A DNA stretch of 64,000 bases from Streptomyces sp. NRRL S-1022 (lineage in GTDB: Bacteria; Actinomycetota; Actinomycetes; Streptomycetales; Streptomycetaceae). Location: assembly GCF_000720135.1 (NCBI RefSeq), contig NZ_JOIU01000011.1:337348-401347 (forward strand), read 5' to 3'. Each line of letters starts with the position of its first letter. Position 1 is the stretch's first letter. Under the pieces are notes generated by a model that saw only the letters and a program-made list of their open reading frames with translations, did not search any database and was not told the origin of the DNA. The translations under genes were made by a program, and so were the position numbers. Shown piece by piece: positions 23,669 through 64,000 of the stretch.

Positions 23669-23731
23669 CCCACCAGTCCGAGGAGTACCTATGACACGGC
23701 AGCCCGACAGTGCGCGTACGGGAGAGTGCGG

Positions 23732-27877: not shown

Positions 27878-27887
27878 GGAGCACAGC

Positions 27888-48190: not shown

Positions 48191-51097
48191 TCAGCACTGC
48201 TCCGCCGCGAGGGCGCAGAGCTGGGAGCGGTTGGGCAGGCCGGTCTTGGCGATGAGGCTGGCGACGTGCTTCTCGACGGTGCGCGGCGATATGTAGAGCC
48301 GGGCGGCGATGTCCTTGTTGCTGGGGCGGTCGGCCAGCAGGCGGAAGATCTCGTACTCGCGGACCGTCATGCCCTTCAGCCGCAGCTCTGGTGGAATCCG
48401 GTCGCTGCCGGTGCGGTGCTGGCGTACCGGCGCGCCGATCGCGCGCAGCAGGGTCCGGCAGGCTCCGGCCACCGCGGTGGCGGAGGTCCCGCGGAAGTGG
48501 TGCTCGGCCTCCCGCAGCCATCGTTCCGGTTCGCCCCAGTTGAGCGCGTGGGCCTCTTCCGCGATCAGCCGTTGTCCGAGGTGGCGGGCGGTGGGGTAGG
48601 GCGCGCCCGTCTCCTGGGCGAGGAGTGCGGCGCGTCCGGCCGCCTCGGGCCGCCCCTCCCGGCCGAGCAGGACGGCCTCGGCGAGGAGGACGAAGTGGTG
48701 GTTCCACCGCATCCGGCCCGCGGCGCTGCCGGCCAGCCGGTCGAGGTGACCGCGGTCGGCCCGGCCGTCCAGGAGGTCGAGCAGCAGACCGAGCCCGTGC
48801 CGTCCGCTCAGGTGGAAGGTGGTCGGGTTCTCGGCCTCCAGTGCCTCCAGGTCGGCCATGGTCCGGGCCGCCTGGTCCCGGTTCTCCTCCAGCAGGGCGC
48901 AGAAGACCCGGGCCAGGCCGAGGGCCAGCGGTTCCTCGGGCGAGCGGCTCCCGCCCCAGCGTCCGAAGTCGGTCAGGGCCTCCTCCATGGCGGGGCGGTC
49001 GCCCTGGTGGGCGGCCAGTACCGCGCGGGCCATCAGCAGGTAGCGGGCCACCGACGTGAGCTTCAGGCGGGTCGCCATGGTCAGCGTCTCCTCCCCCAGC
49101 GTCCGGGCCTCGGTGAACCGGCCGCTCAGCACGTCGTGGAGGGTGAGGATGCCGTCGATGCCGTAGACGACGGTGACCGCACCGAGCCGCTGGGCCTCCG
49201 TGCGGGCCTCGTCGAGGGTGGCGGTGCTGCCGTCGTCCAGCCACCGGATGCCGCCGAGCCGGGTGAGCGCGTACATCCGCTGGAGCCACAGGCCGTGCCG
49301 CTCGGCGGTGTTCATCGCCTGTTCCAGGTAGGTACTGGCCTCCCCGAGGTCGCGTTCGCGGGCGACAACGCCGAGGAGCTCCCACGCCTGGCAGGCGACC
49401 AGGGGCAGGCTCTGCCGCTCGGCGGTGTCGAGGGCCGCACGGGCCAGCCGTTCGGCCCGCTGGGTGCGGTCCTGGCCCGGCGTGACGAGGCACAGGTACG
49501 CCTCGACCACGTCGGTCAGCGCGGCGTGCGCCTCGTCGGGCGCCGTCGCCAGCAGGGCGCGGGCACGGTCGATCTGGTTGTTGCCGTCGGTCCAGCGGCC
49601 CGCCATGTACGCCACGTGTGCGAGGCGGGTGTGCAGGGCCGCCAGCCTGGCCGCTCCCAGGCCGGCTCCGGCGAGTTCGCGCAGGCTGCCGGCGAGGCTG
49701 AGCGCCCGGGTCAGGTCCCCGGTCTCGGCGAGCGCGGGCAGCAGCGCCTCCAGGGCTTCCGCGCGGGCGGCGCAGTCGCCGCCTTCCGCCAGCAGCCGCT
49801 CGGCGCGGTCGAGCAACGCGACCGCGGACCCGACCGAGCCGTCGGCGAGGGCACGGCGCCCGGCCTCGGTGAACAGCCGGCCGGCCCGGACGGGGTCGCC
49901 GGCTTCGGCGCGCAGGGTCGCCGCCAGGGGGCACCAGTCGCCCGGCAGGCCGGGGTTGAGGGTCTCGATCGCGTCGGCGGCCTGCTCGGACAGGGCGACC
50001 CGGGCGGTCGGGGTGAGCTGCGCGAGCAGTGCCTCGGCGGTCAGCGGGTGCTGGAAGGCGTACCAGTCGGGGGCGGGTTCGTCGGCCGCGACCAGCCGGG
50101 CGACCACGCTCGCGTGCAGGTGGCTGAGCAGGCTCCGGTCGTCGACGCCGGTCATCGACTGGAGCACCGACAGGGGGAAGCGCCGGCCCAGTACGGCGGC
50201 GGCGCTCAGCAGGGTCCGTCCCTGCGGGCCGAGTTGGTCGATGCGGTGGGTGGCGCTCTCCAGGAGCGCCCTGGGCATGTTGCGGCGGAGGTCGCCGACC
50301 ACCCGCCAGACGGCGCCCTCGCGGACGAGCGAGCCGCCGGCGACCGCGCCCTGGAGGAGTTCCTCGACGAGGAACGGGATGCCCGCGCTGTCCTGCCACA
50401 TCTGGACGAGGACCTCGGCTGGCATTAGACCGGGGTCGGTGTCCAGGCAGGAGGCGATCAGCCGGCCTACCTCGTCGGCGTCCAGCGGTGCCAGCCGGAA
50501 CACCGTCGCGCTGCCGCGGCGCCCCGCGGACTCGGCGAGGTCCAGCGCCTCACCGGGATCGGACCGGAGGGTCGCGACCAGCATGAGCGGCTGCTGTTCG
50601 AGGTTGTCCACCAGGTACTCGACGATGGCGAGGGTCTCGGTGTCGGCGTCGTGCAGGTCCTCCAGGACCAGCAGGCAGCCGCTCTCGCGGCCGGCGTGGG
50701 CGAGCACCCGCAGGACCGCCTCGGCGAGCACCACCGTCGAGCCCTGGTCGGGGGCGCCGGTGCTCCACCCCGGGACGAGCCGGCCCAGCACCGGCCGGTA
50801 CGGTCCGAGGCTCGCCTCGTCCGGTGTCACCCCGCCGCGGGAGAGCGGCATCAGGGCCTCGGTGAGGGGCCGGAGCGGAACCATCGGTCCGATGGTGCTG
50901 CTCCGGCCCTTCAGGACCCGCACGCCGGCGTCCAGCGCCGAGCCGATCAGCTCGGCGACCAGCCGGGACTTGCCGATTCCCCCCTCTCCGACCAGGAACG
51001 CCGTGCCTCCGCGTGACCGGTTCAGATCCCGCAACGTTTCGCCGAGCTCGGTGACTTCGGCCTCACGACCAATGAGATGAGCTGCCCGCAGACGCAT
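48191..51097 (-). CDS. LAL-type LuxR regulator (AAA ATPase)
   Basis: 968-residue large ATP-binding regulator of the LuxR family. Walker A VGEGGIGKSRL near residue 35, Walker B CLLVLEDLHDAD near 135, a long helical (TPR-like) middle, and a C-terminal HTH (LKGMTVREYEIFRLLADRPS, NKDIAARLYISPRTVEKHVA). Such regulators often activate antibiotic clusters. It lies 70 bases after the candidate precursor gene on the same strand. ATG 51097 is favoured because TACTAT at 51111-51106 lies 8 bases upstream, implying an almost leaderless message; in-frame GTGs lie up to 12 codons earlier. Confidence 0.92.
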   Translation of the reverse strand: MRLRAAHLIGREAEVTELGETLRDLNRSRGGTAFLVGEGGIGKSRLVAELIGSALDAGVRVLKGRSSTIGPMVPLRPLTEALMPLSRGGVTPDEASLGPYRPVLGRLVPGWSTGAPDQGSTVVLAEAVLRVLAHAGRESGCLLVLEDLHDADTETLAIVEYLVDNLEQQPLMLVATLRSDPGEALDLAESAGRRGSATVFRLAPLDADEVGRLIASCLDTDPGLMPAEVLVQMWQDSAGIPFLVEELLQGAVAGGSLVREGAVWRVVGDLRRNMPRALLESATHRIDQLGPQGRTLLSAAAVLGRRFPLSVLQSMTGVDDRSLLSHLHASVVARLVAADEPAPDWYAFQHPLTAEALLAQLTPTARVALSEQAADAIETLNPGLPGDWCPLAATLRAEAGDPVRAGRLFTEAGRRALADGSVGSAVALLDRAERLLAEGGDCAARAEALEALLPALAETGDLTRALSLAGSLRELAGAGLGAARLAALHTRLAHVAYMAGRWTDGNNQIDRARALLATAPDEAHAALTDVVEAYLCLVTPGQDRTQRAERLARAALDTAERQSLPLVACQAWELLGVVARERDLGEASTYLEQAMNTAERHGLWLQRMYALTRLGGIRWLDDGSTATLDEARTEAQRLGAVTVVYGIDGILTLHDVLSGRFTEARTLGEETLTMATRLKLTSVARYLLMARAVLAAHQGDRPAMEEALTDFGRWGGSRSPEEPLALGLARVFCALLEENRDQAARTMADLEALEAENPTTFHLSGRHGLGLLLDLLDGRADRGHLDRLAGSAAGRMRWNHHFVLLAEAVLLGREGRPEAAGRAALLAQETGAPYPTARHLGQRLIAEEAHALNWGEPERWLREAEHHFRGTSATAVAGACRTLLRAIGAPVRQHRTGSDRIPPELRLKGMTVREYEIFRLLADRPSNKDIAARLYISPRTVEKHVASLIAKTGLPNRSQLCALAAEQC

Positions 51098-51105
51098 ACC
51101 TCCGG

Positions 51106-51133
51106 ATAGTAGCCACTCGCTCACGAAGGTCAC
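51106..51133 (-). promoter_or_regulatory. Promoter of LAL regulator, near-leaderless
   Basis: On the minus strand GTGACC (51133-51128) is followed 16 bases later by TACTAT (51111-51106), and ATG 51097 begins 8 bases after that. The regulator can thus be expressed separately from the precursor gene upstream. Confidence 0.5.
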
Positions 51134-51167: not shown

Positions 51168-51377
51168 TCAGGAGGGGACCGACACGGTGGTGATGGTGGC
51201 GGAGCCGAGGCCGACCACCACGCCGCTGCCGAGGGTCATTCCAGCCAGCGCCCGGGTCCGGGCGCACGCCCCGTTCCAGCGGACCAGCCGGATCTCGCCG
51301 GCCGGGTCGGTGTCCGTCGCGGACGCGGCGCCCGTGGCCTCGGCGTGGACGGTACCGTTCTGCAGGAAACTGGACAT
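51168..51377 (-). CDS. Candidate lanthipeptide precursor with a single Cys
   Basis: 69-residue peptide with GAAGGA six bases before ATG 51377, encoded 110 bases downstream of LanM on the same strand. The first ~30 residues (MSSFLQNGTVHAEATGAASA, then an acidic TDTDPAGE) look like a leader. The remainder contains one Cys (Cys38 in WNGACARTRA) and a hydrophobic, Ser/Thr-rich C-terminus (MTLGSGVVVGLGSA, then TITTVSVPS) with eight Ser/Thr after residue 45. Only one thioether could form within it; several dehydro residues could remain. I do not recognise the family. Position and composition support the call, not similarity. Confidence 0.65.
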   Translation of the reverse strand: MSSFLQNGTVHAEATGAASATDTDPAGEIRLVRWNGACARTRALAGMTLGSGVVVGLGSATITTVSVPS

Positions 51378-51487: not shown

Positions 51488-54400
51488 TCAGCCCCCGCCG
51501 CCCGGGGCCGGGTCGAGCAGCAGGACCGAGGGCACGGTGTCGGCGAAGCCCAGCCGCAGCAGGGCGTAGCCGATGCCCGACAGTCCGGTGAGCAGGCCGG
51601 GTGTCGGTACGCGCCCGGGTGTCCCGCAGCGGGGCCCCCAGGCGTCGAGCAGTCCGAGGGCCAGGCCGATCCGGCCGGTCAGGCTGCTGCGCGCCCCGGG
51701 GTGGCCGCGCGCGGCGAGGGCGGCCACCGCTTCCGCGATGCCCATCTCGCCGTGGCAGAGGCTGAGGTCGGCCACCGGCGGGTGTTCGGTGAGCCGGCGG
51801 CTCACGTCCCCGGCCGGGCCGTCCGCCGGCTGCGGGCAGAGTCCGGCGTCGGCCGCCGCCAGTACGACGCCGCTCGTGCCGGAGCACCAGCCGGCGTCGA
51901 GCCGGTCCGTCGCCGCGAGTGCGGTGGCCAGCCTGGCCCGGCCGGCCGTCTCGGCCCACGTGCCCGGTGGACCGCCGGCGAACCGGGCGTGCCGGGTGAG
52001 GGCCCAGCCGATGCCCGCCTCGCCGTAGGCGAAGCCGAAGTCCTCCGGCGCCCCGTCGCCGGGCCGGCCGGCCGGCGCGTGGGCCGGCAGCCGTTCGGCG
52101 ATGCGGTCGGCGAGGTCGGCGGCCTGCGGCAGCCCGCGCTCGCTGTGCACCGCGTGCAGGGCGGCGAGCGCTCCGGCCAGGCCGGCCGACACGCCCGGCG
52201 GGGTGTCGTCGCCGTGGGCCGCCAGCGCCAGGGCGTCCAGCGCCGTCGGCAGGCACCCTGCGAGGTCGTCGTCGACCAGGGTGGCCACCCGTGCGAGGGC
52301 GTAGCAGACCCCGCCGAGGCCCTCGAAGCCGCCGGGGCCCACGGCACGGCTCAGCGCCGGGTCGGCGGCCATCGCGGTGACGAGTTCGGGTACGGGGGCG
52401 AGCGCCGCCCGGGCCAGTTCGGTGTGCCGGGCGGAGCCGGTGAGGGCGCCGAGCTGGGCCAGGAAGAGGGCCACCCCGCTGTACCCCTGGGCCAGTCCGG
52501 CGCCCATGGGCAGTACCGTCCAGCGGTCGTCGACCGCCTCCAGCCCGATCCAGTTGACCCGCCCGTGCCCGTGGACGGCCCGGCCGGCGATCTCGTCGGC
52601 GATCCCGGAGGCGGCGGCCAGCAGCGCGGAGGGTTCCGGCAGGGCGGCCGGGGCGGGGCGGCCCCGGCGGCTCACCCGGTGGTGGCGTCCGGCGGCGTCC
52701 GGCTCCGCGGACGCCAGGGTGGCCGAGATGATCCACTCCTGGACGCGGCGGTCGACGGTGCTCATGGCGGCGAGCTTCGCCCGTGCGGAGGCGAGGCCGG
52801 AGGTATTCAGGACGCCGTCGACCGGGCTGCCGTCCGAGGCGAAGACCTGCGGCGAGCCGGGCCGGTGGAAGAAGACGGGGACGTCGCCGTCCCACAGGTC
52901 GGCGATCTCGTACTCGATCAGGGCCTGGCGGGCCGGGTCGCCGTCCGAGTCGGCCCACAGCACCGCGAACATGGCGTCCCGGTCGAGCCCGTCGCGCAGT
53001 ACCTGCGGATGGGTCGCCTCCTCCAGCAGGGTGGCGTACAGCATCGTCGGGCGGAGCACGAGACGGCCGACCGCGTCCGCGGCGGCGGCCAGCGGTCCGG
53101 CGGGGCCGGACAGTTCGTTGCGGTGCCGCACGACGGCGTCGTACCCGGTGCGGAATCCCGCCAGTACGGCGGCCTGCCGGTCGGCGCTGCCGGGTCCGGT
53201 CCCGGCGCGGTACGGCCGGTTGAGTGCGCCGGTGAACGGCGCCGGGCGGCGTACCAGGCGCATCTCGTCGGTGCCTGCGTCCTCCCAGACCATCCGGGTG
53301 TCGGGGGACTGGCCGCCGGGCGCGCCGCCCAGCGCGGAGACGTCGACCGCGCCCAGTTCGCCCATCAGGAACTGGGGCAGCAGGCAGGTGCGGTGCACCG
53401 AGGAGGCGTGGGCCGCGGCGGCCGGGTCGGGCAGGGTGGTCCCGCCCTCGGGCAGGACGGGGTGCAGCAGCGTCTCGACGTCGACGAGCACGGGCTGGTC
53501 GCCGTGCGCGAGGACGTTCTCGTAGTGCAGGTCCACCCCTTCGAGGGTGTAGGCCAGGGCGATCAACGCGCCCTGCCTGCGGTGGAAGCGGTCGATCTCG
53601 GCCAGCGAACGGCAGGTGCGGTGGTCGATGTACTCCAGCCACCCGTAGCCGTCGCCGGCCACCCAGCGCGGGGTGCGCGGTGCGAGTCCCGGTACCTTGC
53701 CGTCGAGCCAGCCGGCCATCCGGTCCAGCAGGGCGTGCTGGTCGACCGGCCGCGGCTTGTAGACCGCGCTGCCGCCGGCGAACCGGAGCACCGCCACCGA
53801 CCTGCCCCGCTGGTGCAGGTCCCCGAGTCCCAGCTCGACGGCGGTCAGCGGGCCCGGGTCCCGTCCGGCGAACAGTTCGCCGGTCAGCCGCCGCCGGTCG
53901 GCGGCGAGCCGTGCCAGCAGCTCGGCGCCGGACCGGGCGGTGTGCCGGCAGGTCCGGGCCAGCAGCCGGGCGAGGACGGGGTATCCGGCGAACAGGCGGG
54001 TGAGGCCGGCCCGGGTGCCCGTACGGGCGGCGAAGTCGGCGAACCGGGCCGCGGCGGTGGCGCCGGACAGGTCGCCCGCGGTCCGCGCGGCGGCCAGCTC
54101 GACGACCAGGGTGCGGGCCGCCGCCTTGGTCAGCCGCCGGGTCAGCCAGTGCCGGTAGGCCCGGGCGAACACCGCCACGTCGTCGGGCTCGGCGCCGCCC
54201 GCCCCGGCCTGTTCGACCAGCTCGGCGACGGCCGCCGTCACCAGCGGGCGCAGGACCGGCGCGAACACCGCGGCTCCGTCCGCCGGGTCGGCGGGCGCGG
54301 TCACCGCGGCACCGAGGACCTCCGGGGGTGTCTCGGGTGCCGCGGCGAGCGCGTCCTCGACGAACAGCGCCCACCGCGGCTTGGCGAGCCGGCCGGCCAG

Positions 54401-54634
54401 CCGGGCCGGGGACTCGGCGGCGAGCGCCGCCACCAGCCGGTCGTCGGCGCCCAGTCGGGCGGAGCGCACGGACTCGCAGGCCAGCTCGACCGGCGAGCGG
54501 GGGCGCAGCCGGGCGGCCGGGGCCGGCGCCGCGGGCGGGTGCGGGGCCGACAGCCGTTCGCGGAGTGTCGCGGCCGGCGCCCACCAGGCGGGCGCGGCCT
54601 CCGTGGTGGGACAGGCGGTGTCGGTTGAGGTCAC
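51488..54634 (-). CDS. lanM: LanM class II lanthipeptide synthetase, altered cyclase site
   Basis: 1048-residue bifunctional synthetase. Dehydratase residues are intact: Lys293 in VYKPRP, Asp368-x-His370-x-x-Asn373 in VDLHYENVL, LVDVETLL and LRPTMLY. The C-terminal cyclase keeps zinc ligands Cys917 (WCSGTSG), Cys960 and His961 (LCHGEMG), but the conserved AHG motif that carries the catalytic acid (His212 of NisC) reads AYG, with Tyr870. It would phosphorylate and eliminate Ser/Thr and may cyclise in an unusual way or not at all. The start is GTG 54634 because AGGTGA at 54640-54645 then has ideal spacing; GTG 54643 is an alternative. The candidate precursor lies downstream. Confidence 0.93.
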   Translation of the reverse strand: MTSTDTACPTTEAAPAWWAPAATLRERLSAPHPPAAPAPAARLRPRSPVELACESVRSARLGADDRLVAALAAESPARLAGRLAKPRWALFVEDALAAAPETPPEVLGAAVTAPADPADGAAVFAPVLRPLVTAAVAELVEQAGAGGAEPDDVAVFARAYRHWLTRRLTKAAARTLVVELAAARTAGDLSGATAAARFADFAARTGTRAGLTRLFAGYPVLARLLARTCRHTARSGAELLARLAADRRRLTGELFAGRDPGPLTAVELGLGDLHQRGRSVAVLRFAGGSAVYKPRPVDQHALLDRMAGWLDGKVPGLAPRTPRWVAGDGYGWLEYIDHRTCRSLAEIDRFHRRQGALIALAYTLEGVDLHYENVLAHGDQPVLVDVETLLHPVLPEGGTTLPDPAAAAHASSVHRTCLLPQFLMGELGAVDVSALGGAPGGQSPDTRMVWEDAGTDEMRLVRRPAPFTGALNRPYRAGTGPGSADRQAAVLAGFRTGYDAVVRHRNELSGPAGPLAAAADAVGRLVLRPTMLYATLLEEATHPQVLRDGLDRDAMFAVLWADSDGDPARQALIEYEIADLWDGDVPVFFHRPGSPQVFASDGSPVDGVLNTSGLASARAKLAAMSTVDRRVQEWIISATLASAEPDAAGRHHRVSRRGRPAPAALPEPSALLAAASGIADEIAGRAVHGHGRVNWIGLEAVDDRWTVLPMGAGLAQGYSGVALFLAQLGALTGSARHTELARAALAPVPELVTAMAADPALSRAVGPGGFEGLGGVCYALARVATLVDDDLAGCLPTALDALALAAHGDDTPPGVSAGLAGALAALHAVHSERGLPQAADLADRIAERLPAHAPAGRPGDGAPEDFGFAYGEAGIGWALTRHARFAGGPPGTWAETAGRARLATALAATDRLDAGWCSGTSGVVLAAADAGLCPQPADGPAGDVSRRLTEHPPVADLSLCHGEMGIAEAVAALAARGHPGARSSLTGRIGLALGLLDAWGPRCGTPGRVPTPGLLTGLSGIGYALLRLGFADTVPSVLLLDPAPGGGG

Positions 54635-54998
54635 GTCCGTCACCTTTCCAGCGGCGCCGCCCGCCCGTACAGGGAGTGGTGCCCCCACATTCCGCGGCGG
54701 ACTACCCAATCGAAGCCATCGCCCGCCCCCCCCATGCGCACCGCCGGGCGGCCCGGTGGTAGCGGCGGGCGGCCGGGACGGCGCCGTGCCGGCGGCGGGC
54801 GGGCCCCTGCGGGGAGGTGCCGTCCGGCGGGACCCGGCCGTGGGCGGTACGGCCGCCGGTGTACGGCCCGGGGGGCGGCCCCCGGGGGCGGCCGGGCGCG
54901 GTACGGGAATGCGGGTAATCGCGCCCCATGCGGCGCGGCACCCGGGTTGCCGAGACTCCTCGCCGAGAGGTTCGCCCCACGCTGACCGAGGAGTACAC
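54635..54998. other. Divergent intergenic region between LanM and LuxR genes
   Basis: No supported gene in these 364 bases. They should hold the two divergent promoters of this cluster. They are extremely rich in G and C, except TGGGTAGT-like sequence near 54700-54710 on the minus strand. I see no clear -35/-10 pair or operator. Confidence 0.4.
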
Positions 54999-55622
54999 AT
55001 GGGCAATCCCCTGTCGCTGTGCGTCGTGGCCCTGGACCCGCTGCTCGAAGCCGGCGCCGTCAGCGCCCTGTCCGGCAACCCGGACATCGCACTGGTCCGG
55101 CCGGAGGAGGGGGCCGACGTGGCCGTGGTGATCTTCGACCGGGTGGACCGCCAGGAACTCGACCTGGTGGCCGCGACCGGCGGCGGCCCGCACCGGCCCG
55201 CAATCGTCGTGATCGCCTCCGACATGTCCCCCGCCGAGGCCGCCGAGGCCATCAACGCCGGGGCCCGCGGTCTCCTGCGCCGGCACGAGGTCGACGCCGA
55301 GCGGCTCGTGCGGACCGTGCGGACCGTGGCCGGCGGCGACTGCACCGTGCCGCCCGACCTGATCGACGGGCTCCTCGACCAGGGCACCGAGGCCGACGCG
55401 TATCCCGCGGTGCGGGGGCGTGGACCGGACTGGGGTCTGGACGAGCGGGAACGCGCGGTGCTGCGGATGGTGGCCGACGGCCGGGAGACCGACGAGATCG
55501 CCAAGGAACTGTGCTACTCCCCGCGGACGGTGACCACCGTCGTCCGCGACATCACCCAGCGGTTCCGGCTGCGCAACCGCGCCCACGCCGTGGCCTACGC
55601 CCTGCGGGCGGGCCTGCTGTGA
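54999..55622 (+). CDS. LuxR-type regulator with degenerate receiver
   Basis: 207 residues. The C-terminal LuxR HTH (LDERERAVLRMVADGRETDE, IAKELCYSPRTVTTVVRD) is clear. The N-terminal ~120 residues resemble a response-regulator receiver (VVALDPLLEAGAVSALSG, VVIFDRVD, INAGARGLLRRHE), but the acidic cluster and the switch Lys are not evident, so phosphorylation is doubtful. ATG 54999 follows GAGGAG. Its stop overlaps the next regulator by 4 bases. Confidence 0.88.
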   Translation: MGNPLSLCVVALDPLLEAGAVSALSGNPDIALVRPEEGADVAVVIFDRVDRQELDLVAATGGGPHRPAIVVIASDMSPAEAAEAINAGARGLLRRHEVDAERLVRTVRTVAGGDCTVPPDLIDGLLDQGTEADAYPAVRGRGPDWGLDERERAVLRMVADGRETDEIAKELCYSPRTVTTVVRDITQRFRLRNRAHAVAYALRAGLL

Positions 55623-56257
55623 CCGCCCTCGTCCTCGAAGCGCCGCCGGAGCCCGGGCTGGGCACGGGCACGCTGCGCGTGCGGCTCGGTCCGGCGGGCG
55701 GGGCGGCCCGCGACACGGTGGCCGCCGGTCTGCGCCGGGCCGGCATCGAGCTGGCGGCCGGACCCTGCGACGGGGCCGTGCGGGTGGCCGTCGGGCGGAC
55801 ACCCGGTGCGGCGCTCGACGGCTGGCCGGAACCCGGCGGCGGCCCCCTGCTGCTGGTCGCCGACACCTTCACCGCTGCGGGCGTGCGGCAGGCCGTGCGG
55901 GCCGGGGCGGTGGCCATGCTGCAGTCCGCCGAGGCCACCCCGGAGCGCCTGCTCACCGCCGTCCACGCCGCCCGGTACGGCGAGGGCCGGATGTCCTACG
56001 ACGTCCTGGTCCGCCTCCTCGACCGGGCGGGCAGCGCTGCCGGGCACCCGCGCCCCGGCCGGGACTCACCGCTGACGGCCCGCCAGCGGACGGTGCTCGC
56101 GCTGGTCGCCGAGGGGCACGGCAACGCGGCCATCGCCCGTGAACTCTCCTGCTCCCAGCACACCGTGAAGAACGTCATGTACGACCTGATGACGCGCCTG
56201 CACGTCCGCAACCGGGCCCACGCGGTGGCGTACGGCGTCCGCACCGGGCTGATCTGA
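55619..56257 (+). CDS. Second LuxR-type regulator
   Basis: 212 residues, LuxR HTH at the C-terminus (LTARQRTVLALVAEGHGNAA, IARELSCSQHTVKNVMYD). The N-terminal domain has receiver-like order (LLLVADTFTAAGVRQAVRAG, AVAMLQSAEATPE) but lacks a phospho-acceptor Asp at the expected strand end. It is similar in design to the regulator just upstream, so the two may act as a heterodimer on the cluster promoters. GTG 55619 overlaps the upstream stop. Confidence 0.87.
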   Translation: MTALVLEAPPEPGLGTGTLRVRLGPAGGAARDTVAAGLRRAGIELAAGPCDGAVRVAVGRTPGAALDGWPEPGGGPLLLVADTFTAAGVRQAVRAGAVAMLQSAEATPERLLTAVHAARYGEGRMSYDVLVRLLDRAGSAAGHPRPGRDSPLTARQRTVLALVAEGHGNAAIARELSCSQHTVKNVMYDLMTRLHVRNRAHAVAYGVRTGLI

Positions 56258-56417
56258 CCCGGCCGCGGCCGACCAGAGACATTGACGCAGCAAATGCCGC
56301 GCGGGGCGCTGCCGCTCCTTCCCTACTGCGCCGCCGTACCCGGACGGCAAGCTCCGGACGTGCCCCGGCCACCCGAGGCGCGCGACGACCTACCCCGACT
56401 TCCTTGGAGGTGAGCCG

Positions 56418-59400
56418 GTGGACCGCGGTGACGGCCGGACGACATCCTTCTCGCAGCAACGGCTGTGGTTCCTCGACCAACTGCGGCCCGGCACGGCGGA
56501 CCATCTGCTTCCGCTGGCGCTGCGCCTGCGCGGCGGCCTCGACACCGAGGCCCTCGCCGCCGCACTGACCGACGTGACCGACCGGCACGAGGTGCTGCGC
56601 ACCCGGTTCACGGCCGCCGACGGCGAACCGGTGGCCCACGTGGTCCCGCGGGTCGAGGTCCCGCTGGAGACGGTCGAGGCGCCCGCCGCCGACGCGGCCG
56701 GCATCGCCGCGGTCCTCGACCGCGCGGTGCGCCGGCCGGTCGACCTGTCGACGGCGCCGCCGCTGCGGGCCACCCTGGCGCGGCTCGGGCCCGGCGACCA
56801 CCTGCTGGTGATCGTGGTGCACCACATCGCCTTCGACTTCTCCTCCTGGAACGTCCTCACCCGCGACCTGGCCGCGGCCTACCGCGCCCGGACCACCGGC
56901 GCCCCCGCCGGGCTGCCGGAGCTTCCCCTCCAGTACGCCGACCTCGCGGCCCGGCAGCGCGAGCGGTCGGCGGGCCCCCGGCTCGCCCGCGGCCTCGACC
57001 ACTGGCGCTCGCGGCTGGCGGGCCTGCCGCCGCTGGACCTGCCGACCGACCGGCCGCGTCCCGCCGAGTTCGACGGCACCGCCGCCGTGGCCCGGTTCAC
57101 CCTCCCGGCCGACCTGGTGGCAGCGGCCGACCGGCTGGCCCGGGCCCGCCGCGCCACCCGGTTCATGGTGCTGCTCGCGGCCTTCCAGGCCCAACTGGGC
57201 CGTTACAGCGGGCAGCAGGACTTCGCCGTCGGCACCCCGGTCGCCGGCCGCGGCCACTCCGCCGCCAGGGATCTCATCGGCCCCTTCGTCAACACCGTGG
57301 TCCTGCGCGCCGACCTGTCCGGCCGGCCGGGCTTCGGCGCCCTGGTGGACCGGGTCCGCAAGGCGTCCCTGGCCGACCTCACCCACGCCGACACCCCGTT
57401 CGAACGGGTGGTGGGCGAGCTGGCCCCGCCCCGCGACCTCAGCCGCAACCCCCTCTTCCAGGTGTCGTTCCTGACCCTCGACTCCCAGGCCGCACCGCCC
57501 GACCTGCCCGGCCTGTCGGTCGAGGTGGTGCCCACCCCGGTCGCCGGGACCCCCTTCGACCTGGCGCTCGACCTGCTCGGACGCCCCGACGGAAGCCTCG
57601 GGCTGCGCCTGCAGTACGCCACCGCGCTGTTCGCGCCCGAGACGGCCGCACGCATCACGGAGGACTACGTCCGGCTGCTGCGCGAGCTGCTCGCCGCCCC
57701 GGACGAGCCGCTGGCCCGCGCCACCGCCGTACTCGAACCGCTGCCCGGCGGCGAGCGCCGGCGCCGGCTCGCGCTCGGCCACGGCAGTGCCCGCACCGTA
57801 CCCCCGCACACCGTCACCGACCTGTTCGAGGAGCAGGCGCGCCGCACCCCGCACGCCACCGCCGTCCGCTCCCACGACGGCGAGCTGAGCTACGCCGCCC
57901 TCGACGAGCGGGCCGACGAGCTGGCGCACCGGCTGCGCGGCCTCGGCGTCGGCCGCGGGGCCCGGGTGGGTGTCCTGCTGGAGCGCGGCACCGGGCTCCT
58001 CGTCGCCCTGCTCGGCGTCCTCAAGGCCGACGCCGCCTACGTGCCGCTCGACCCCCTGCACCCCGCACGGCGGATCGCCGGCCTGATCGCGGGCACCGAG
58101 GCCGCCGTGGTCCTCACCACCGGCGCGCTGGCCGACCGGGTGGCCGGCACGGAGGCGCAGGCCCTCCTGCTCGACGCCGCCCCGCCGCCGGCCGGTCCGT
58201 GCCACCGGCTCGACCGGAGCACCGGCCCGCACGACCTCGCGTACATCTTCCACACCTCCGGTTCGACCGGCACTCCCAAGGGCGTACAGATCCCGCACAG
58301 TGCCCTGACCAACTTCCTGCACGCGATGGCGGCCCGGCTGGAGCCGCGGCCGGGGGACACCGTCCTCGGTGTCACCACCGCCTCGTTCGACCCCTCGATG
58401 CTGGAGCTGTGCCTGCCGCTGCTGACCGGCGCCCGGCTGGTGCTGGCCGACGCCGAGCAGTCCCGCGACCCCGAGCGCCTGATCCGGCTGATCGGCGAGA
58501 CGCGGCCGGACCTGGTCCAGGCCACTCCGTCGATGCTGCGGATGCTGGTCGACACCGGCTGGACCCCCGGCCCCGGCCTCACCGTGCTGTCCGGCGGCGA
58601 GAAGCTGCACACCGACCTGGCCGCGGCCCTCGCCGCCCGCGGCGCCCCGGTCCTGGACCTGTACGGGCCGACCGAGGCCACGATCTGGACCAGTGTGGCC
58701 GGGCACGGCGCCGACGGGCGGGTACGGCAGTGGGCCGCGGTGGACAACACCACCGTCCGGGTACTCGACGACCGGCTGGAACCGGTGGCGGAGGGCGTCA
58801 CCGGGCACGTCTGCATCGGGGGCGACGGTCTCGCCTGGGGCTACCGCGGGCGGCCCGCGCAGACCGCCGGCGTCTTCCTCCCCGACCCGCACGCCACCGC
58901 GCCCGGCGGCCGGCTCTACGCCACCGGCGACCTCGGCCGGATCCGGCCCGACGGCTCGCTGGAGATTCTCGGCCGCAGCGACCACCAGGTGAAGATCCGC
59001 GGCCACCGGATCGAACCGGGCGAGATCGAGGCCGCGCTGCTCGCCCTCGACGGTGTCCGCGCCGCCGTGGTGCACCCGACGCCGGACGCCGACGGCGGCC
59101 GGCAGCTCACCGCCTACCTGGTCGCCGAGGACCCCCGGAACCCTCCCACGCCCGACGCCCTGCGCGCCGAACTGCTCGAATCCCTGCCCCACCACCTGGT
59201 CCCGGCCACGTTCGTCCTGCTGGACGCCATCCCGACCGCGGTCAGCGGAAAGGTCGACCGGCACGCGCTGCCGGTGCCGGCACCGCAGGCGGCCGGCCCG
59301 GCCGCTCCTGCCCGCACCCCGCGGGAACGGTCCGTGGCCAGGGTCTGGGAAGAGGTCCTCGGCGCCACCGGGATCGGCGCCCACGACGACTTCTTCCTGC

Positions 59401-59615
59401 TCGGCGGACACTCGCTGCTCGCCACCCGGGTGTCCGTGCGCCTGCGCGCCGCCCTCGGGGTGGACGTCCCCGTGCGGGCACTGTTCGACCACCCCACCGT
59501 CGCCGCCCTCGCCACGGCCCTGGAGGGCTACCCGCTCCTGGCCGCGGACGGCCCCCTGCCGCGGCTGACCGCCCGCCCGCGCGGCGAGCGCACGACCGCC
59601 GGCCGCCGACCGTAA
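56418..59615 (+). CDS. Single-module NRPS (C-A-T), glycine-like code
   Basis: 1065 residues. Condensation domain (about 8-430) with active site HHIAFDF at 135-141 (HHxxxD present, last Gly is Phe). Adenylation domain (about 455-960): FHTSGSTGTPKG, FDPSMLE with Asp658, LYGPTEATIW, TGDLGRIRPDG. The pocket code I read is D-P-L-Q-L-G-L-I-W-K, one residue from the glycine code DILQLGLIWK. Thiolation domain: Ser999 in LGGHSLLA. No thioesterase. A C domain at the N-terminus without an upstream module implies it accepts a donor from another protein. GTG 56418 follows a perfect GGAGGTGA at 56407-56414. Confidence 0.92.
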   Translation: MDRGDGRTTSFSQQRLWFLDQLRPGTADHLLPLALRLRGGLDTEALAAALTDVTDRHEVLRTRFTAADGEPVAHVVPRVEVPLETVEAPAADAAGIAAVLDRAVRRPVDLSTAPPLRATLARLGPGDHLLVIVVHHIAFDFSSWNVLTRDLAAAYRARTTGAPAGLPELPLQYADLAARQRERSAGPRLARGLDHWRSRLAGLPPLDLPTDRPRPAEFDGTAAVARFTLPADLVAAADRLARARRATRFMVLLAAFQAQLGRYSGQQDFAVGTPVAGRGHSAARDLIGPFVNTVVLRADLSGRPGFGALVDRVRKASLADLTHADTPFERVVGELAPPRDLSRNPLFQVSFLTLDSQAAPPDLPGLSVEVVPTPVAGTPFDLALDLLGRPDGSLGLRLQYATALFAPETAARITEDYVRLLRELLAAPDEPLARATAVLEPLPGGERRRRLALGHGSARTVPPHTVTDLFEEQARRTPHATAVRSHDGELSYAALDERADELAHRLRGLGVGRGARVGVLLERGTGLLVALLGVLKADAAYVPLDPLHPARRIAGLIAGTEAAVVLTTGALADRVAGTEAQALLLDAAPPPAGPCHRLDRSTGPHDLAYIFHTSGSTGTPKGVQIPHSALTNFLHAMAARLEPRPGDTVLGVTTASFDPSMLELCLPLLTGARLVLADAEQSRDPERLIRLIGETRPDLVQATPSMLRMLVDTGWTPGPGLTVLSGGEKLHTDLAAALAARGAPVLDLYGPTEATIWTSVAGHGADGRVRQWAAVDNTTVRVLDDRLEPVAEGVTGHVCIGGDGLAWGYRGRPAQTAGVFLPDPHATAPGGRLYATGDLGRIRPDGSLEILGRSDHQVKIRGHRIEPGEIEAALLALDGVRAAVVHPTPDADGGRQLTAYLVAEDPRNPPTPDALRAELLESLPHHLVPATFVLLDAIPTAVSGKVDRHALPVPAPQAAGPAAPARTPRERSVARVWEEVLGATGIGAHDDFFLLGGHSLLATRVSVRLRAALGVDVPVRALFDHPTVAALATALEGYPLLAADGPLPRLTARPRGERTTAGRRP

Positions 59616-59639
59616 CCGCCTCCTCGCCCAAGGACCGCC

Positions 59640-60908
59640 ATGACCCTCGTTGCGACCACCGACACCTCCGTCTTCGAGAAGATCGAGTCCGAGGTGCGGA
59701 TGTACTGCCGTACCTTCCCCGTGGTGTTCGAGCGCGCGAAGGGCGCGCTGCTGCACACCGACGACGGCCGGCCCTTCATCGACTTCTTCTGCGGCGCCGG
59801 AAGCCTCAATTACGGACACAACCACGACGCCGTCAAACGGCGGATCCTCGACTACCTCGCCGGCGACGGCCTCATGCACGGCCTCGACCTGCACACCGTC
59901 GCCAAGCGCGACTTCCTCACCCGCTTCACCGAGGTCGTCCTGCAGCCGCGCGGCCTCGACTTCAAGGTGCAGTTCACCGGCCCCACCGGGACCGACGCGG
60001 TGGAGGCCGCCCTCAAACTGGCCCGCCGGGCGACCGGCCGCACCGGGCTGACGGCGTTCACCGGCGCCTACCACGGGATGTCGCGCGGTGCGCTGGAGGT
60101 CACCGGCAGCCGCCGCGCCCGCCGCGCGGGCACGGTCGCCGGCGGGGACGTGACCTTCGTGCCCTTCGAGGACGGCCCGCTCGGCCCGTTCGACTCCATC
60201 GGGCTGATCGAGCGGCTGTGGGCCGACCCGTCCTCCGGCACCGAACCACCCGCGGCGGTCGTCGTGGAGGCGGTCCAGATGGAGGGCGGGGTCTATCCGG
60301 CGAGCCGGGAGTGGCTGCGCCGGCTGCGCGAGGTGACCGAACGGTACGGGGTGCTGCTGGTCCTGGACGAGATCCAGACCGGGTGCGGCCGCACCGGCGC
60401 GTTCTTCGGCTTCGAGCAGTCCGGGATCGTGCCGGACGTCGTCACCGTCTCCAAGTCCCTCAGCGGTTACGGGCTGCCGCTGTCCCTCACGCTGTTCCGC
60501 CGCGAGCTGGACCTGTGGCAGCCCGGCGAGCACACCGGCACGTTCCGCGGCAACCAGCTCGCCTTCGTCGCGGCCACCGCGGCGTGCGAACTGTGGCAGC
60601 AGGACGACTTCCTGACCGGCCTTCAGCGGGGTGCCGAGCGCCTCGCCCGGTTCCGGGCCGACGCGGGCGCGCTGGACCCCGACCTCGTCCTGCGCGGCCG
60701 GGGCATGGTGCTCGGCGTCGACACCGCCCGGGCCGGCGGCACGGAGCGGGCCGAGCGCGTCCAGCGCCACGCCTTCGAGCACGGCCTGATCGTGGAGCGC
60801 TGCGGCCGGCACGACGAGGTCCTCAAGGTGATGCCCCCGCTGACCATCGACCCCGGCCTGCTCGACGAGGGGCTCGGCATCCTGCTCGACGCCCTGCAAG
60901 CGAACTGA
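59640..60908 (+). CDS. Diaminobutyrate aminotransferase (EctB-like)
   Basis: 422-residue class III PLP aminotransferase. LDEIQTGCGRTGAFFGFEQS, PDVVTVSKSLSGYGLP (Schiff-base Lys272) and PGEHTGTFRGNQLAF are characteristic of EctB-type enzymes, which convert aspartate semialdehyde to L-2,4-diaminobutyrate with glutamate as donor. Ectoine partners EctA/EctC are absent here, so the diaminobutyrate is probably a building block for this cluster; the next gene encodes a carbamoyltransferase that could modify its side-chain amine. Confidence 0.9.
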   Translation: MTLVATTDTSVFEKIESEVRMYCRTFPVVFERAKGALLHTDDGRPFIDFFCGAGSLNYGHNHDAVKRRILDYLAGDGLMHGLDLHTVAKRDFLTRFTEVVLQPRGLDFKVQFTGPTGTDAVEAALKLARRATGRTGLTAFTGAYHGMSRGALEVTGSRRARRAGTVAGGDVTFVPFEDGPLGPFDSIGLIERLWADPSSGTEPPAAVVVEAVQMEGGVYPASREWLRRLREVTERYGVLLVLDEIQTGCGRTGAFFGFEQSGIVPDVVTVSKSLSGYGLPLSLTLFRRELDLWQPGEHTGTFRGNQLAFVAATAACELWQQDDFLTGLQRGAERLARFRADAGALDPDLVLRGRGMVLGVDTARAGGTERAERVQRHAFEHGLIVERCGRHDEVLKVMPPLTIDPGLLDEGLGILLDALQAN

Positions 60909-60936
60909 CGGCCAGCCACCCGAGGAGGGACTCCAG

Positions 60937-61884
60937 ATGCCTCGCCCCGACCGCCGCCACCTGATCTCCGTCGACGACCTGACCGACCGGGAACTGCGCT
61001 GGCTCGTGCACCGCGGCGCCCAGTACGCCGCCGGCGAGTGCGACGGCGCCCGGCCGCTCGCCGACGCCGTCGTCGGCGTCCTGTTCCGCAAGACCTCCAC
61101 CCGCACCCGGACCGCGTTCTCGGCGGGCGCGCTCCGGCTCGGCGGGCGGCTGATCACCTACGGTCCCGGCGACCTCCAGGAGAACACCGGGGAGAGTTCC
61201 GAGGACACCGGTGACGTGCTGTCCCGCATGCTCGACGTGCTGGTGGCCCGTACCGCCGGCAGCACCGAGGAGCTGCGTGCCTACGCCGCCCAGCGGCGGA
61301 TGGCCGTGGTCAACGCGATGAGCGCCGCCGAGCACCCCACCCAGGCCCTCACCGACCTCACCACGATGCTCGGACGCTTCGGGCGGATCGAGGGGCTGCG
61401 GGTGCTGTACGCCGGGGAGGGCAACAACACCGCCTCCGCGCTCGCCCTGGCCCTCAGCCGGTTCCCCGGCACCGAGCTGCACCTGCGGACCCCGCCCGGC
61501 TACGGACTCGACCCGGCCTTCCTCGACCGGGCGGGCATCCACGCCAAGGGGTCGGGCGCGCTGGTCGAGGAGCTGCACCACATGGCCGACCTGCCCGAGG
61601 TCGACATCGTCTACACCACGCGCTGGCAGACGACCGGCACGACGAAGCCCGACCCCGACTGGCGGCGCGTCTTCGCCCCGTTCCAGGTGAACGCCGCCGT
61701 GATGGCGGCCTGTCCCGGCGCGGACTTCATGCACGACCTGCCCGCGCACCGCGGCGACGAGGTGACCGGCGAGGTGCTGGACGGCCCCGCGAGCATCGCG
61801 TTCCAGCAGGCCGAGAACAAGTACCACAGCGCCCGCGCCGTTCTGGAGTGGTGCCTCGGCGGCATCCCGGCAGAGTCGGCCTGA
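60937..61884 (+). CDS. OTCase-like carbamoyltransferase, HDLP variant
   Basis: 315 residues, transcarbamylase fold. The carbamoyl-phosphate loop FRKTSTRTR (50-58) and HPTQ (133-136) are intact. The amine-side motif HCLP of ornithine transcarbamylases reads HDLP (266-269), followed by the normal AHRGDEVTGEV. VDIVYTTRWQTTG replaces the usual DxxxSMG loop. These changes point to an amine other than ornithine. With a diaminobutyrate aminotransferase encoded upstream, N4-carbamoyl-diaminobutyrate is the likely product, comparable to ureido-alanine formation in viomycin-type pathways. AGGAGGGA precedes ATG 60937. Confidence 0.87.
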   Translation: MPRPDRRHLISVDDLTDRELRWLVHRGAQYAAGECDGARPLADAVVGVLFRKTSTRTRTAFSAGALRLGGRLITYGPGDLQENTGESSEDTGDVLSRMLDVLVARTAGSTEELRAYAAQRRMAVVNAMSAAEHPTQALTDLTTMLGRFGRIEGLRVLYAGEGNNTASALALALSRFPGTELHLRTPPGYGLDPAFLDRAGIHAKGSGALVEELHHMADLPEVDIVYTTRWQTTGTTKPDPDWRRVFAPFQVNAAVMAACPGADFMHDLPAHRGDEVTGEVLDGPASIAFQQAENKYHSARAVLEWCLGGIPAESA

Positions 61885-61936
61885 CGACCGGCCGGCCGCC
61901 GGCCCGGCGCACTTTTCCCAGGGAGGTAGCACAGCA

Positions 61937-64000
61937 ATGTCCGACACCATACGCATGCCCGGCGGCGGGTGGCGCCTGTGGACGCAGTTCGCGCTCCGCG
62001 GGCCCGGTTTCCCCGCCGCGGGCGTACTCCGGCTGGCCCCGGAGGGCCTGGCCTCGGCCGCGGACAAGTTCGCCCCCGGGGAGGTGCCGGCGGGGGCGGA
62101 CTGGGAGGCGTTCGAGGATGCCTTCTCCGCTGCCGCGGTGCGCACCGCGCGCCACCTCCAGGAGATCGCCGCCTCGGCACCGTTCCGGGCCGCGGTCGCC
62201 TGGCAGAACCGTGCGGTGCTGCGCACCGGCATCAAGCCGTTCCTCGACTGGACGCCGTCCGCCGCGGGCCGCACCAGCATGCCCCGCCAGCGCGAGGAGC
62301 TGGTCGCCCACTACTGGCAGCGGTTCTGCGTCAAGAACGACACCATCGGCTTCTTCGGGCCGGTCGGCTGGGGCACGTTCGACACCTCCCTGCGGGGCGT
62401 CGAGGTCCATCCCGGCACCGGCCTGGTCGCCGAGTCGCGGGTCTACTTCTCCAGCTGGTCGATGGACGCCCTCGCCAAGGCCATCGACCGCGACCCGCGG
62501 GTGCGCGCGTGGACACCGCCGCGCCAGGTCCCGTACGTCCGGGTGGTCGACGGCACGGTGCGCTTGCCCGGCCGGCCGCCCCAGGTCGCCCCCGAACCCG
62601 CGCTCACCGTCCTGAGGCTGTGCGACGGCCGCCGGACGCCCGCCGAGATCACCGCCCTGGCCGCCGGTGAGCTGGGCCGGGACCTGCCGGACCGGGAGGT
62701 GACCGAGGCCCTGGAATGGCTGGTCTCACGCCGCCTGATCGGCTGGAGGCTGGAGGTGCCCGCCGGCACCTACCCCGAACGGGAACTGCGCGCCCTGCTG
62801 GAGCGCATCGGCGACCCGGCGGTACGGGAGCCCGCCCTGGCCAGGCTGGCCGTGCTGGAGGCCGGCCGCGAGCGGGTGGAGCGGGCCGGCACCGACACCG
62901 AGGAGCTGACCGCCGCGCTCGCCGCCCTGGAGGCGGACTTCGCCGAGATCACCGAGGTGTCCGCGGTCCGCGAGAAAGGGGCCCGGACCGCGCCCAACCG
63001 CGCCCTCGTGTACTCCGACTGCCGCCGGTCCGCCACGGCCACCGTGGGCACCGCCGTCCTGGAACGGCTCGCGCCGCTGGAGCTGTGCCTGACGGCGGCC
63101 CGCTGGATGACCAACCGGTACGCCGAGGCCGTCGGCGCGCGCATCCACGAGGCCTACCTGGAACTGCGGGAGCGCGACGGGCAGGTCGACCTCGGCTCGC
63201 TCTGGTTCGCCTGCCTGCCCGCCCCGCACCCGGAGTCCTTCGCCGAAATCGAGCGGATCCAGGCCGAACTGCGCGAGCGCTGGGGGCGGATCATCGACGC
63301 CCCGGCCGGCGCCCGGCGGGTCTCGCTCTCCAGCGCCGACATCGCCGGCCGGGTGCGCGAGGCGTTCCCCGAGGGCGGCCGCGGCTGGTCGCTCAGCAGG
63401 TACATCAGCCCCGACCTGCTGATCGTCGCCGATGATCCGGGCGCCGTGGAACGCGGCGAGTTCCAGCTCGTCCTCGGCGAGCTGCACGTCGCCATGAACA
63501 CCATCGGCCAGTCGCTCTTCGTCCACCAGCACCCCGACCGCGCGCAGTTGATCGAGGAGACCACCCGCGACTTCCCCGGCCCGCGGCTGCTGCCCATGCT
63601 GCCCAAGGAGCTGCCGCTGAAGTGGTCCGCCCGCAGCCGGCAGTCCCTGGACCGCCCGGAGGACCACTACGTCGCGCTCGCCGACCAAAGCGCCGACCCG
63701 CACCGACCGCGTACCGTCCGCTCCGCCGACGTGCGGGTGGAGGAGCGGGAGGGCCGGCTCGCGGCCGTGCTGCCCGACGGCTCCGTCTTCGACCTGCTCG
63801 ACGTGTTCTGCCACGCGCTCACCAACCGCGTGATGGACCGCTTCACCCTGCGCCCGGACGGCGACCACTCGCCCCGGATCACCATCGACTCCACCGTCGT
63901 CGCCCGGGAGAGCTGGCGGTTCGCCGGCTCCGCGCTGACGTTCGCCGACGACAAGAGCGAGGCCCGGCGCTTCGTCCGGGCCCGGCAGTGGCGCGACACC
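61937..64000 (+). CDS. LanB-type lantibiotic dehydratase (partial, runs off end)
   Basis: At least 688 residues, continuing beyond the window. The N-terminal half matches the Lant_dehydr_N (LanB) family: RFCVKNDTIGFFGPVGWG near 128-146, FSSWSMDALAKAI, LRLCDGRRTPAEI, ALVYSDCRRSATAT and IIDAPAGARRVSLSS. LanB proteins glutamylate Ser/Thr using glutamyl-tRNA and then eliminate; short relatives add amino acids to peptide ends. Whether the elimination domain is present cannot be seen here. ATG 61937 follows GGGAGG at 61921. It is the last gene of the operon seen. Confidence 0.87.
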   Translation, partial: MSDTIRMPGGGWRLWTQFALRGPGFPAAGVLRLAPEGLASAADKFAPGEVPAGADWEAFEDAFSAAAVRTARHLQEIAASAPFRAAVAWQNRAVLRTGIKPFLDWTPSAAGRTSMPRQREELVAHYWQRFCVKNDTIGFFGPVGWGTFDTSLRGVEVHPGTGLVAESRVYFSSWSMDALAKAIDRDPRVRAWTPPRQVPYVRVVDGTVRLPGRPPQVAPEPALTVLRLCDGRRTPAEITALAAGELGRDLPDREVTEALEWLVSRRLIGWRLEVPAGTYPERELRALLERIGDPAVREPALARLAVLEAGRERVERAGTDTEELTAALAALEADFAEITEVSAVREKGARTAPNRALVYSDCRRSATATVGTAVLERLAPLELCLTAARWMTNRYAEAVGARIHEAYLELRERDGQVDLGSLWFACLPAPHPESFAEIERIQAELRERWGRIIDAPAGARRVSLSSADIAGRVREAFPEGGRGWSLSRYISPDLLIVADDPGAVERGEFQLVLGELHVAMNTIGQSLFVHQHPDRAQLIEETTRDFPGPRLLPMLPKELPLKWSARSRQSLDRPEDHYVALADQSADPHRPRTVRSADVRVEEREGRLAAVLPDGSVFDLLDVFCHALTNRVMDRFTLRPDGDHSPRITIDSTVVARESWRFAGSALTFADDKSEARRFVRARQWRDT

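What the first reader, a model, noticed from the sequence alone, without database searches (positions are those of the whole stretch)
54999..64000. Hybrid operon: NRPS module, diaminobutyrate aminotransferase, carbamoyltransferase and LanB, divergent from LanM
Genes for a non-ribosomal unit (C-A-T), a non-protein amino acid (diaminobutyrate, then probably its ureido form) and a tRNA-dependent dehydratase follow one another with short gaps, divergent from a class II lanthipeptide synthetase. Class I and class II lanthipeptide enzymes together with NRPS parts are unusual. One possibility is a ribosomal peptide capped by an NRPS-made ureido-diaminobutyryl unit; another is LanB acting on a carrier-bound or tRNA-derived amino acid.
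Basis: partly seen in the sequence, partly recalled or inferred. Interest (0 to 1): 0.9.

Follow-up and report, generated by a model that had tools for sequence, protein, structure and literature searches.

The report
NRPS cluster with twin LanB-like ligases
Many actinobacteria carry one gene cluster in which two enzymes that look like lantibiotic dehydratases, but bear what seems to be the signature of tRNA-dependent peptide ligases, sit with a non-ribosomal peptide machine and a small ribosomal peptide, which suggests an undescribed way to start or extend such peptides.

Summary
The reported genes are present: NRPS C-A-T (adenylation code Gly-like), EctB-type diaminobutyrate aminotransferase, carbamoyltransferase and a LanB-like protein, divergent from LanM. 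The contig ends inside LanB; contig C62 of the same genome shares its last 99 bp and carries A domain, IlvA/serine-racemase-like enzyme, carrier protein and a second LanB. This block recurs (44 of 65 loci in complete order), so it is a conserved cluster. A LanM of the window's type was found in 12 of 12 non-Streptomyces block genomes examined (5 linked; LanM-small ORF-regulator triad seen whole in 10), and LanA in 13 of 16 Streptomyces block genomes. The carbamoyltransferase has the published diaminobutyrate-transcarbamylase motif (TRWQTTG/HDLP), so ureido-diaminobutyrate is well supported. The LanBs are probably not dehydratases: no elimination domain, but residues resembling those reported for PEARL ligases. 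Best reading: two PEARL-like ligases with a free A domain and carrier protein build a starter for the NRPS line, while LanM-LanA makes a separate dehydrated peptide, perhaps a signal read by the adjacent regulator. The nearest characterised system, threopeptin (SnaE), lacks the carrier-protein block, second LanB and LanM. All function is inferred.

The parts
48191..51133 (-). AAA ATPase + LuxR HTH regulator (MalT/LAL-like; LAL label recalled), last gene of the apparent LanM-LanA-regulator operon
   Evidence: Pfam AAA_16 4.9e-23 and GerE 2.9e-11; follows LanA in the Streptomyces triads whose stretch reaches that far
51168..51377 (-). LanA candidate, 69 aa, one Cys (ACAR) in the middle, C-terminus ITTVSVPS
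   Evidence: ORF; 249 homologous proteins at E<=0.01; found in 19 of 291 and 32 of 392 Streptomyces genomes (overlapping samples)
51488..54643 (-). LanM, class II lanthipeptide synthetase; kinase motifs and zinc ligands (GWCSGTSG, LCHGEMG) intact
   Evidence: DUF4135 1.1e-112, LANC_like 7.7e-19, TIGR03897 635 bits over cut-off 304; motifs. Start codon is a choice of my ORF caller
54999..55622 (+). LuxR1, HTH regulator
   Evidence: GerE 1.2e-11 in the longer frame; homologue in 31 of 65 loci
55619..56257 (+). LuxR2, HTH regulator overlapping LuxR1 by 4 bp
   Evidence: GerE 8.8e-15 in the longer frame
56418..59615 (+). NRPS module C-A-T; A-domain code DPLQLGLIW (read as Gly; code table recalled)
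   Evidence: Pfam domains; code by alignment of the 89%-identical S. seoulensis copy, same residues in the window protein
59640..60908 (+). EctB-type L-2,4-diaminobutyrate aminotransferase
   Evidence: NF006733 566.8 bits over cut-off 438
60937..61884 (+). L-2,4-diaminobutyrate transcarbamylase (DBTCase-type)
   Evidence: OTCace domains; STRTR, HPTQ, TRWQTTG, HDLP; motif given for DBTCase in PMC6022934
61937..64000 (+). LanB1, PEARL-like ligase, cut at contig end after 688 aa (776 aa in S. seoulensis)
   Evidence: PF04738 1.1e-49; motifs; model of the S. seoulensis homologue
63902..64000 (+). 99 bp identical to the end of contig C62 inside LanB2 (LanB1/LanB2 repeat, the likely reason that the assembly ended here)

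Best explanation
The locus is the left half of one conserved actinobacterial cluster. Shown by sequence: NRPS proteins that begin with a C domain, a free A domain, a free carrier protein, a PLP enzyme of the threonine-dehydratase/serine-racemase fold and two LanB-like proteins, plus genes for Dab, ureido-Dab and, in S. seoulensis and some others, SbnA/SbnB-type genes for Dap. Inferred: LanB1 and LanB2 are PEARL-like ligases that activate a carboxylate with ATP and join it to the amino group of an aminoacyl-tRNA (or an aminoacyl carrier protein); with the A domain, IlvA-like enzyme and carrier protein they form an unusual starter unit, which is passed to the first C domain. The A domain has a basic residue (Arg239) where Glu-specific domains have Lys (recalled), so an acidic amino acid is my guess for the carrier-bound residue. 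The Dab aminotransferase and carbamoyltransferase supply 2-amino-4-ureidobutyrate to an NRPS module. LanM with LanA makes a dehydrated peptide (no Cys in the C-terminal part in the Streptomyces members) that is not built into the NRPS product but is tied to it, most simply as a signal for the regulator in the same operon.
Confidence: 0.45

Rival explanations
1. The LanBs are true glutamyl-tRNA dehydratases acting on a Ser/Thr bound to the carrier protein, giving Dha/Dhb as NRPS starter.
For: PF04738 family and TbtB/MibB/NisB fold; carrier protein next to LanB2; Thr/Ser-dehydratase-like neighbour (best NCBIfam model PRK08246 219 bits, under its cut-off of 331).
Against: No PF14028 elimination domain in the three LanBs scanned and no gene in the clusters read was assigned to it, though not every neighbour was scanned; conserved ATP-type residues absent from the canonical LanB of the same genome; free A-domain code is not Ser/Thr-like (codes recalled).
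Confidence: 0.12
2. LanM-LanA makes a companion antibiotic that works together with the NRPS product; the two are co-regulated but chemically separate.
For: Strong co-occurrence, also in trans; Actinokineospora and Actinomadura relatives have C-terminal TTCC and an intact LanC site.
Against: In the Streptomyces relatives of the two-NRPS type the LanC zinc ligands are degenerate, and none of 120 listed LanA proteins has a Cys after the LAG motif; LanA is nearly invariant in those 120 (the best of 249), unlike most antibiotic cores (general knowledge).
Confidence: 0.25
3. LanA is a PEARL scaffold: LanB1/LanB2 extend its C-terminus or join it to the carrier-bound amino acid, so the ribosomal peptide enters the NRPS line.
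For: C-terminal extension is the known PEARL reaction; LanB1 has an RRE-like region; LanA C-terminus conserved; co-occurrence.
Against: Triad beside NRPS genes without LanB in the fetched stretch (G208, G268, G282, G305); LanA C-termini end differently (SAPR, SAPNVTW, SIPILPI, TTCCPPVAP); 7 of 12 non-Streptomyces triads are on another contig.
Confidence: 0.08
4. Two unrelated clusters that are neighbours by chance.
For: Triad found with other NRPS genes, and LanB block found with the triad on another contig.
Against: LanA in 13 of 16 Streptomyces block genomes (about one expected from 19 of 291, not corrected for kinship) and LanM of this type in 12 of 12 others; same divergent arrangement around LuxR1 in Salinispora and Actinokineospora.
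Confidence: 0.05

Closest known systems
Threopeptin (sna) NRPS-PKS cluster with SnaE (PMC11212132; parts 1 to 3 of 6 of the text read)
   Same: LanB-like protein in an actinobacterial NRPS cluster with an MbtH-like protein; gene deletion there shows that SnaE adds Thr to the NRPS/PKS product
   Different: sna has one LanB, a ureido-forming C domain and a PKS; the genes the paper lists include no free A domain/carrier protein/IlvA-like block and no LanM. The authors state that no lanthipeptide precursor genes could be identified in such clusters, whereas here a LanM-LanA pair accompanies the block
PEARLs TglB, BhaBC, AmmB (PMC11962472, PMC12945691; passages read)
   Same: LanB-like proteins; residues for ATP and the tRNA CCA end appear conserved here
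   Different: those described extend a ribosomal scaffold peptide; here the neighbours are an A domain and a carrier protein, and there are two LanB paralogues
Diaminobutyrate transcarbamylase of padanamide biosynthesis (PMC4581275 passages, PMC6022934 section 13 read)
   Same: TRWQTTG and HDLP motifs
   Different: padanamide sequences and cluster were not compared here
Livipeptin C-minus NRPS with a tRNA-utilising enzyme (PMC10548850; part 1 and passages read)
   Same: A-PCP without C domain teamed with an aminoacyl-tRNA enzyme
   Different: that enzyme belongs to the L/F transferase family, not LanB
Class II lanthipeptide synthetases (LanM)
   Same: DUF4135 plus LanC domains, short peptide gene next to it
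   Different: in the two-NRPS-type Streptomyces relatives the zinc site is lost and the peptide lacks a C-terminal Cys; regulator gene apparently in the same operon

Membership tests
Class I lanthipeptide dehydratase (LanB) | Glutamylation-type N-terminal domain (PF04738) | tested here: met
   fold match to TbtB, MibB, NisB
Class I lanthipeptide dehydratase (LanB) | Glutamate-elimination domain (PF14028), fused or as a neighbour | tested here: not met
   no PF14028 in the three LanBs scanned (S. seoulensis LanB1 and LanB2, L097); no neighbour gene assigned to it in the clusters read, but not every neighbour was scanned
PEARL (peptide aminoacyl-tRNA ligase) | LanB-like protein without elimination domain | tested here: met
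PEARL (peptide aminoacyl-tRNA ligase) | Residues for ATP (Asp/Glu, Glu-x-Arg) and for the tRNA CCA end (Tyr-x-x-Arg) | tested here: inconclusive
   motif pattern invariant in 30 of 30 rows, ATP-type part absent in a canonical LanB, but no PEARL sequence was aligned; residues taken from PMC11962472
PEARL (peptide aminoacyl-tRNA ligase) | ATP- and aminoacyl-tRNA-dependent amide formation | not testable with these tools
   needs biochemistry
SnaE/threopeptin-type cluster | Ureido-forming C domain with EHHxxHDG | tested here: not met
   HHxxxD motifs seen in S. seoulensis: VHHIAFDF (C-A-T module), VHHIACDG, VHHIAFDG, LHHIAFDA; one of the five C domains (second of the 2405-aa NRPS) has no such motif caught by the pattern
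SnaE/threopeptin-type cluster | No lanthipeptide precursor or LanM | tested here: not met
   LanM and LanA present
Diaminobutyrate transcarbamylase | SxRTR, HPxQ, S/TRWQTTG, HDLP | tested here: met
   window protein; definition
EctB-type diaminobutyrate aminotransferase | Curated family score | tested here: met
   subfamily NF006733 566.8 over 438; equivalog TIGR02407 538.3 under 552.2
Class II lanthipeptide | LanM with kinase and zinc motifs | tested here: met
   window LanM
Class II lanthipeptide | Precursor with Cys and Ser/Thr in the core giving lanthionine | tested here: inconclusive
   one Cys (ACAR) upstream of the Thr/Ser-rich C-terminus; homologues in G268, G238, G305 have no Cys; cleavage site unknown

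The most novel reading that the evidence does not exclude
A ribosomal peptide primes a non-ribosomal assembly line: LanM dehydrates LanA, and the two LanB ligases, bound to LanA through their RRE-like region, activate its C-terminal carboxylate and join it to the amino acid on the free carrier protein, so that the NRPS extends a ribosomally encoded chain. In a milder form, the LanBs use an aminoacyl carrier protein instead of an aminoacyl-tRNA as the amine donor, which is not reported for any PEARL in the passages read.
Probability: 0.1. Interest if true: 0.95.

Novelty: new variant of a known kind. Interest (0 to 1): 0.72.

Why it matters
PMC11212132 states that around two thousand NRPS/PKS clusters encode enzymes annotated as lantibiotic dehydratases and that their functions were unknown. 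This family has two of them tied to a free A domain and carrier protein, which makes the question of what these enzymes join directly testable with a small set of soluble proteins. The LanM-LanA-regulator triad, in Streptomyces with a C-terminal part free of Cys and often a degenerate cyclase site, points to a LanM product that is not a classical lantibiotic. The carbamoyltransferase motif also gives a concrete building block (2-amino-4-ureidobutyrate) to look for in extracts.
Full report
What is in the window. On the other strand lie LanM 51488-54643, a 69-aa LanA candidate 51168-51377 and an AAA-LuxR regulator 48191-51133, 110 bp and 34 bp apart, so probably one operon.

The missing half. 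The window ends at the end of contig C11. C62 of the same genome (5045 bp) has one end identical to it over 99 bp; its other end holds the C-terminus of LanB1, followed by A domain, IlvA-like gene, carrier protein and LanB2, at 89.7% identity over 5076 columns with S. seoulensis. The likely cause of the break is a repeat: in S. seoulensis LanB1 and LanB2 share an exact stretch of 166 bp, and their last 110 residues are 96% identical against 58% for the rest. I did not look for the rest of the cluster in the window's own genome.

Relatives. A scan of genome contigs found 127 relatives of LanB, kept the best 80 and gave 65 distinct loci. With genes called by my script, 44 of 65 show LanB-A-IlvA-PCP-LanB in that order and 3 more the same without a called carrier protein; 51 of 65 have two LanBs. 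Of the other 18, many are short contigs; L060, L067, L081 (Amycolatopsis) lack the free A domain and carrier protein, L095 and L097 have only A, PCP and one LanB, and in L079 a small extra ORF was called inside the block. LanB1 and LanB2 form two old groups (tree of 47 rows: LanB1 support 100/99; LanB2 with the two single LanBs 99/95).

Complete clusters. The window type, read in full in S. seoulensis (G341), has regulator-LanA-LanM, then divergent LuxR1-LuxR2-NRPS(C-A-T)-DabAT-carbamoyltransferase-LanB1-A-IlvA-PCP-LanB2, then two NRPSs (2405 aa, two C, A and T domains and TE; 2173 aa, two C, A and T domains) and a TauD-type oxygenase on the opposite strand, then MbtH, MFS, SbnA-like and SbnB-like genes. 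G363, G378 and G339 are of this type as far as fetched. In six other Streptomyces genomes read at length (G365, G369, G316, G327, G391, G134) two NRPSs, a gene that is a P450 in G369 and an MFS gene are found and the C-A-T, DabAT and carbamoyltransferase genes are not. A-domain codes by alignment: window type Gly (DPLQLGLIW), Ser (DVWHVSLVD), Val (DALWLGGTF) and two unassigned (DAWQCATVD, DVDENGNVT); code meanings are recalled, not from a call.

Ureido-diaminobutyrate. The carbamoyltransferase keeps STRTR and HPTQ and has TRWQTTG and HDLP where ornithine carbamoyltransferase has DxxxSMG and HCLP. PMC6022934 section 13 gives S/TRWQTTG and HDLP for L-2,4-diaminobutyrate transcarbamylase and TRWQSMG for the diaminopropionate enzyme. 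Of the 13 in hand, the window's included, 12 have TRWQTTG, L038 has TRWETTG, and all 13 have HDLP. So Dab and then 2-amino-4-ureidobutyrate is well supported at sequence level.

Starter hypothesis. The NRPSs of S. seoulensis and G369 and the window's C-A-T begin with a C domain, and the extra A domain and carrier protein are those between the LanBs. The A code is DARS[ACV]SQMT in 53 of 56 domains and one more with one unread position; the two that differ are L095 and L097, which lack the IlvA-like enzyme. The IlvA-like enzyme has SSGNH, as in serine racemases (recalled), in 56 of 57 rows; its best PDB match is a serine racemase and its best NCBIfam models are serine/threonine dehydratases, all under their cut-offs. 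I infer that these proteins build a starter by tRNA-dependent ligation.

The LanM triad. LanA matches are in 19 of 291 Streptomyces genomes and the block (LanB at 45% identity or more, G181 fragment left out) in 16 of 295; 13 genomes have both (about one expected by chance, without correction for kinship), 11 of them on one contig within about 30 kb. LanA without the block: G028, G113, G208, G238, G268, G282; block without LanA: G056, G072, G156, of which G056 does have a LanM at 48%. Of the 19 non-Streptomyces loci I examined 12 genomes: all 12 have a LanM of the window's type (41-48% identity; other LanMs there 29-33%), and in 10 it stands next to a small ORF and an AAA-LuxR gene; L051 and L079 end before the regulator. 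Contig lengths place it on the block's contig in 5 (L045, L051, L079, L095, L097) and elsewhere in 7. In 394 Actinomycetes genomes the block (50% or more) is in 3, all with such a LanM, and a LanM at 44% or more is in 6.

What LanM makes. In the 120 LanA proteins listed (best of 249) the region from GGI to the end is nearly invariant while the N-terminus varies; each has a Cys before the LAG motif and none after it. Elsewhere C-termini differ: TTCCPPVAP and NTTCCPPPAS in Actinokineospora, DTTCCGGSNSSISRTV in Actinomadura, TTVSIPILPI without any Cys in G268. LanM kinase motifs are kept. In one search, 19 of 25 LanMs are readable at the zinc sites: the window's and L079 keep them, and in the other 17 the Cys of the second site is gone. 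In one search they are also intact in G341, G363, G378, G268, G238, G305, G113, G135 and the readable ones outside Streptomyces, and degenerate in G134, G250, G391, G330, G387, G369, G208 and G282. The product is thus probably a dehydrated peptide, in many strains uncyclised. With its gene next to an AAA-LuxR regulator, a signal role is the simplest guess; it is not shown.

Known systems. SnaE of the threopeptin cluster is the closest characterised relation (PMC11212132, parts 1-3 read): a LanB-like protein that adds Thr to a ureido-NRP. That paper says that no lanthipeptide precursor genes can be identified in such clusters; here LanM and LanA are regular companions, and a carrier protein, free A domain, IlvA-like enzyme and second LanB are added. 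Four of the five C domains of the window type in S. seoulensis lack EHHxxHDG; the fifth was not caught by the pattern. Nine literature searches listed no description of this arrangement.

Verdict. Real, conserved and only partly explained. Confident: one cluster, Dab and ureido-Dab supply, LanBs not ordinary dehydratases. Likely: PEARL-like ligation with the free A domain and carrier protein. Open: what is joined to what, and what the LanM peptide does.

Noticed in passing
window 22937-35859 (+): A run of genes that looks like another small biosynthetic cluster: AMP-ligase-like (25099-26625, 31243-32790), a PLP decarboxylase-like gene (26615-27877) and an acyl-carrier-like protein (27888-28163); read by eye from translations only.
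   Followed up: no
window 63902-64000 and C62 end; L036 LanB1/LanB2: LanB1 and LanB2 share near-identical 3' ends (exact 166 bp in S. seoulensis), which looks like gene conversion and probably breaks assemblies inside the genes.
   Followed up: partly
G000:C41:13413-15383, G000:C11:281249-283306, G000:C38:49278-50291: The same genome has a canonical LanB-type protein, another LanB-like protein and another LanC-domain protein, outside this cluster.
   Followed up: partly
L124/L125 (G282), L122 (G268), L128/L129 (G305), L120 (G208): LanM-LanA-regulator triads beside NRPS genes without LanB in the fetched stretch; G282, G268 and G305 also show a gene pair that reads by eye like a B12-dependent glutamate mutase, and G282 has genes 46% and 44% identical to SbnA- and SbnB-like references.
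   Followed up: partly
L053 3071-6223 and other two-NRPS-type LanMs: LanC zinc ligands lost while the kinase motifs are kept and LanA keeps a Cys; in G268, G238 and G305 it is the reverse (zinc site intact, LanA without Cys).
   Followed up: partly
L045 17325-17795: A protein like the regulatory part of aspartate kinase beside the block, consistent with aspartate-derived Dab.
   Followed up: no
L053 7843-8583 and relatives: A peptidase family S51 gene (weakly like dipeptidase E and cyanophycinase) near the block in several Streptomyces loci.
   Followed up: no
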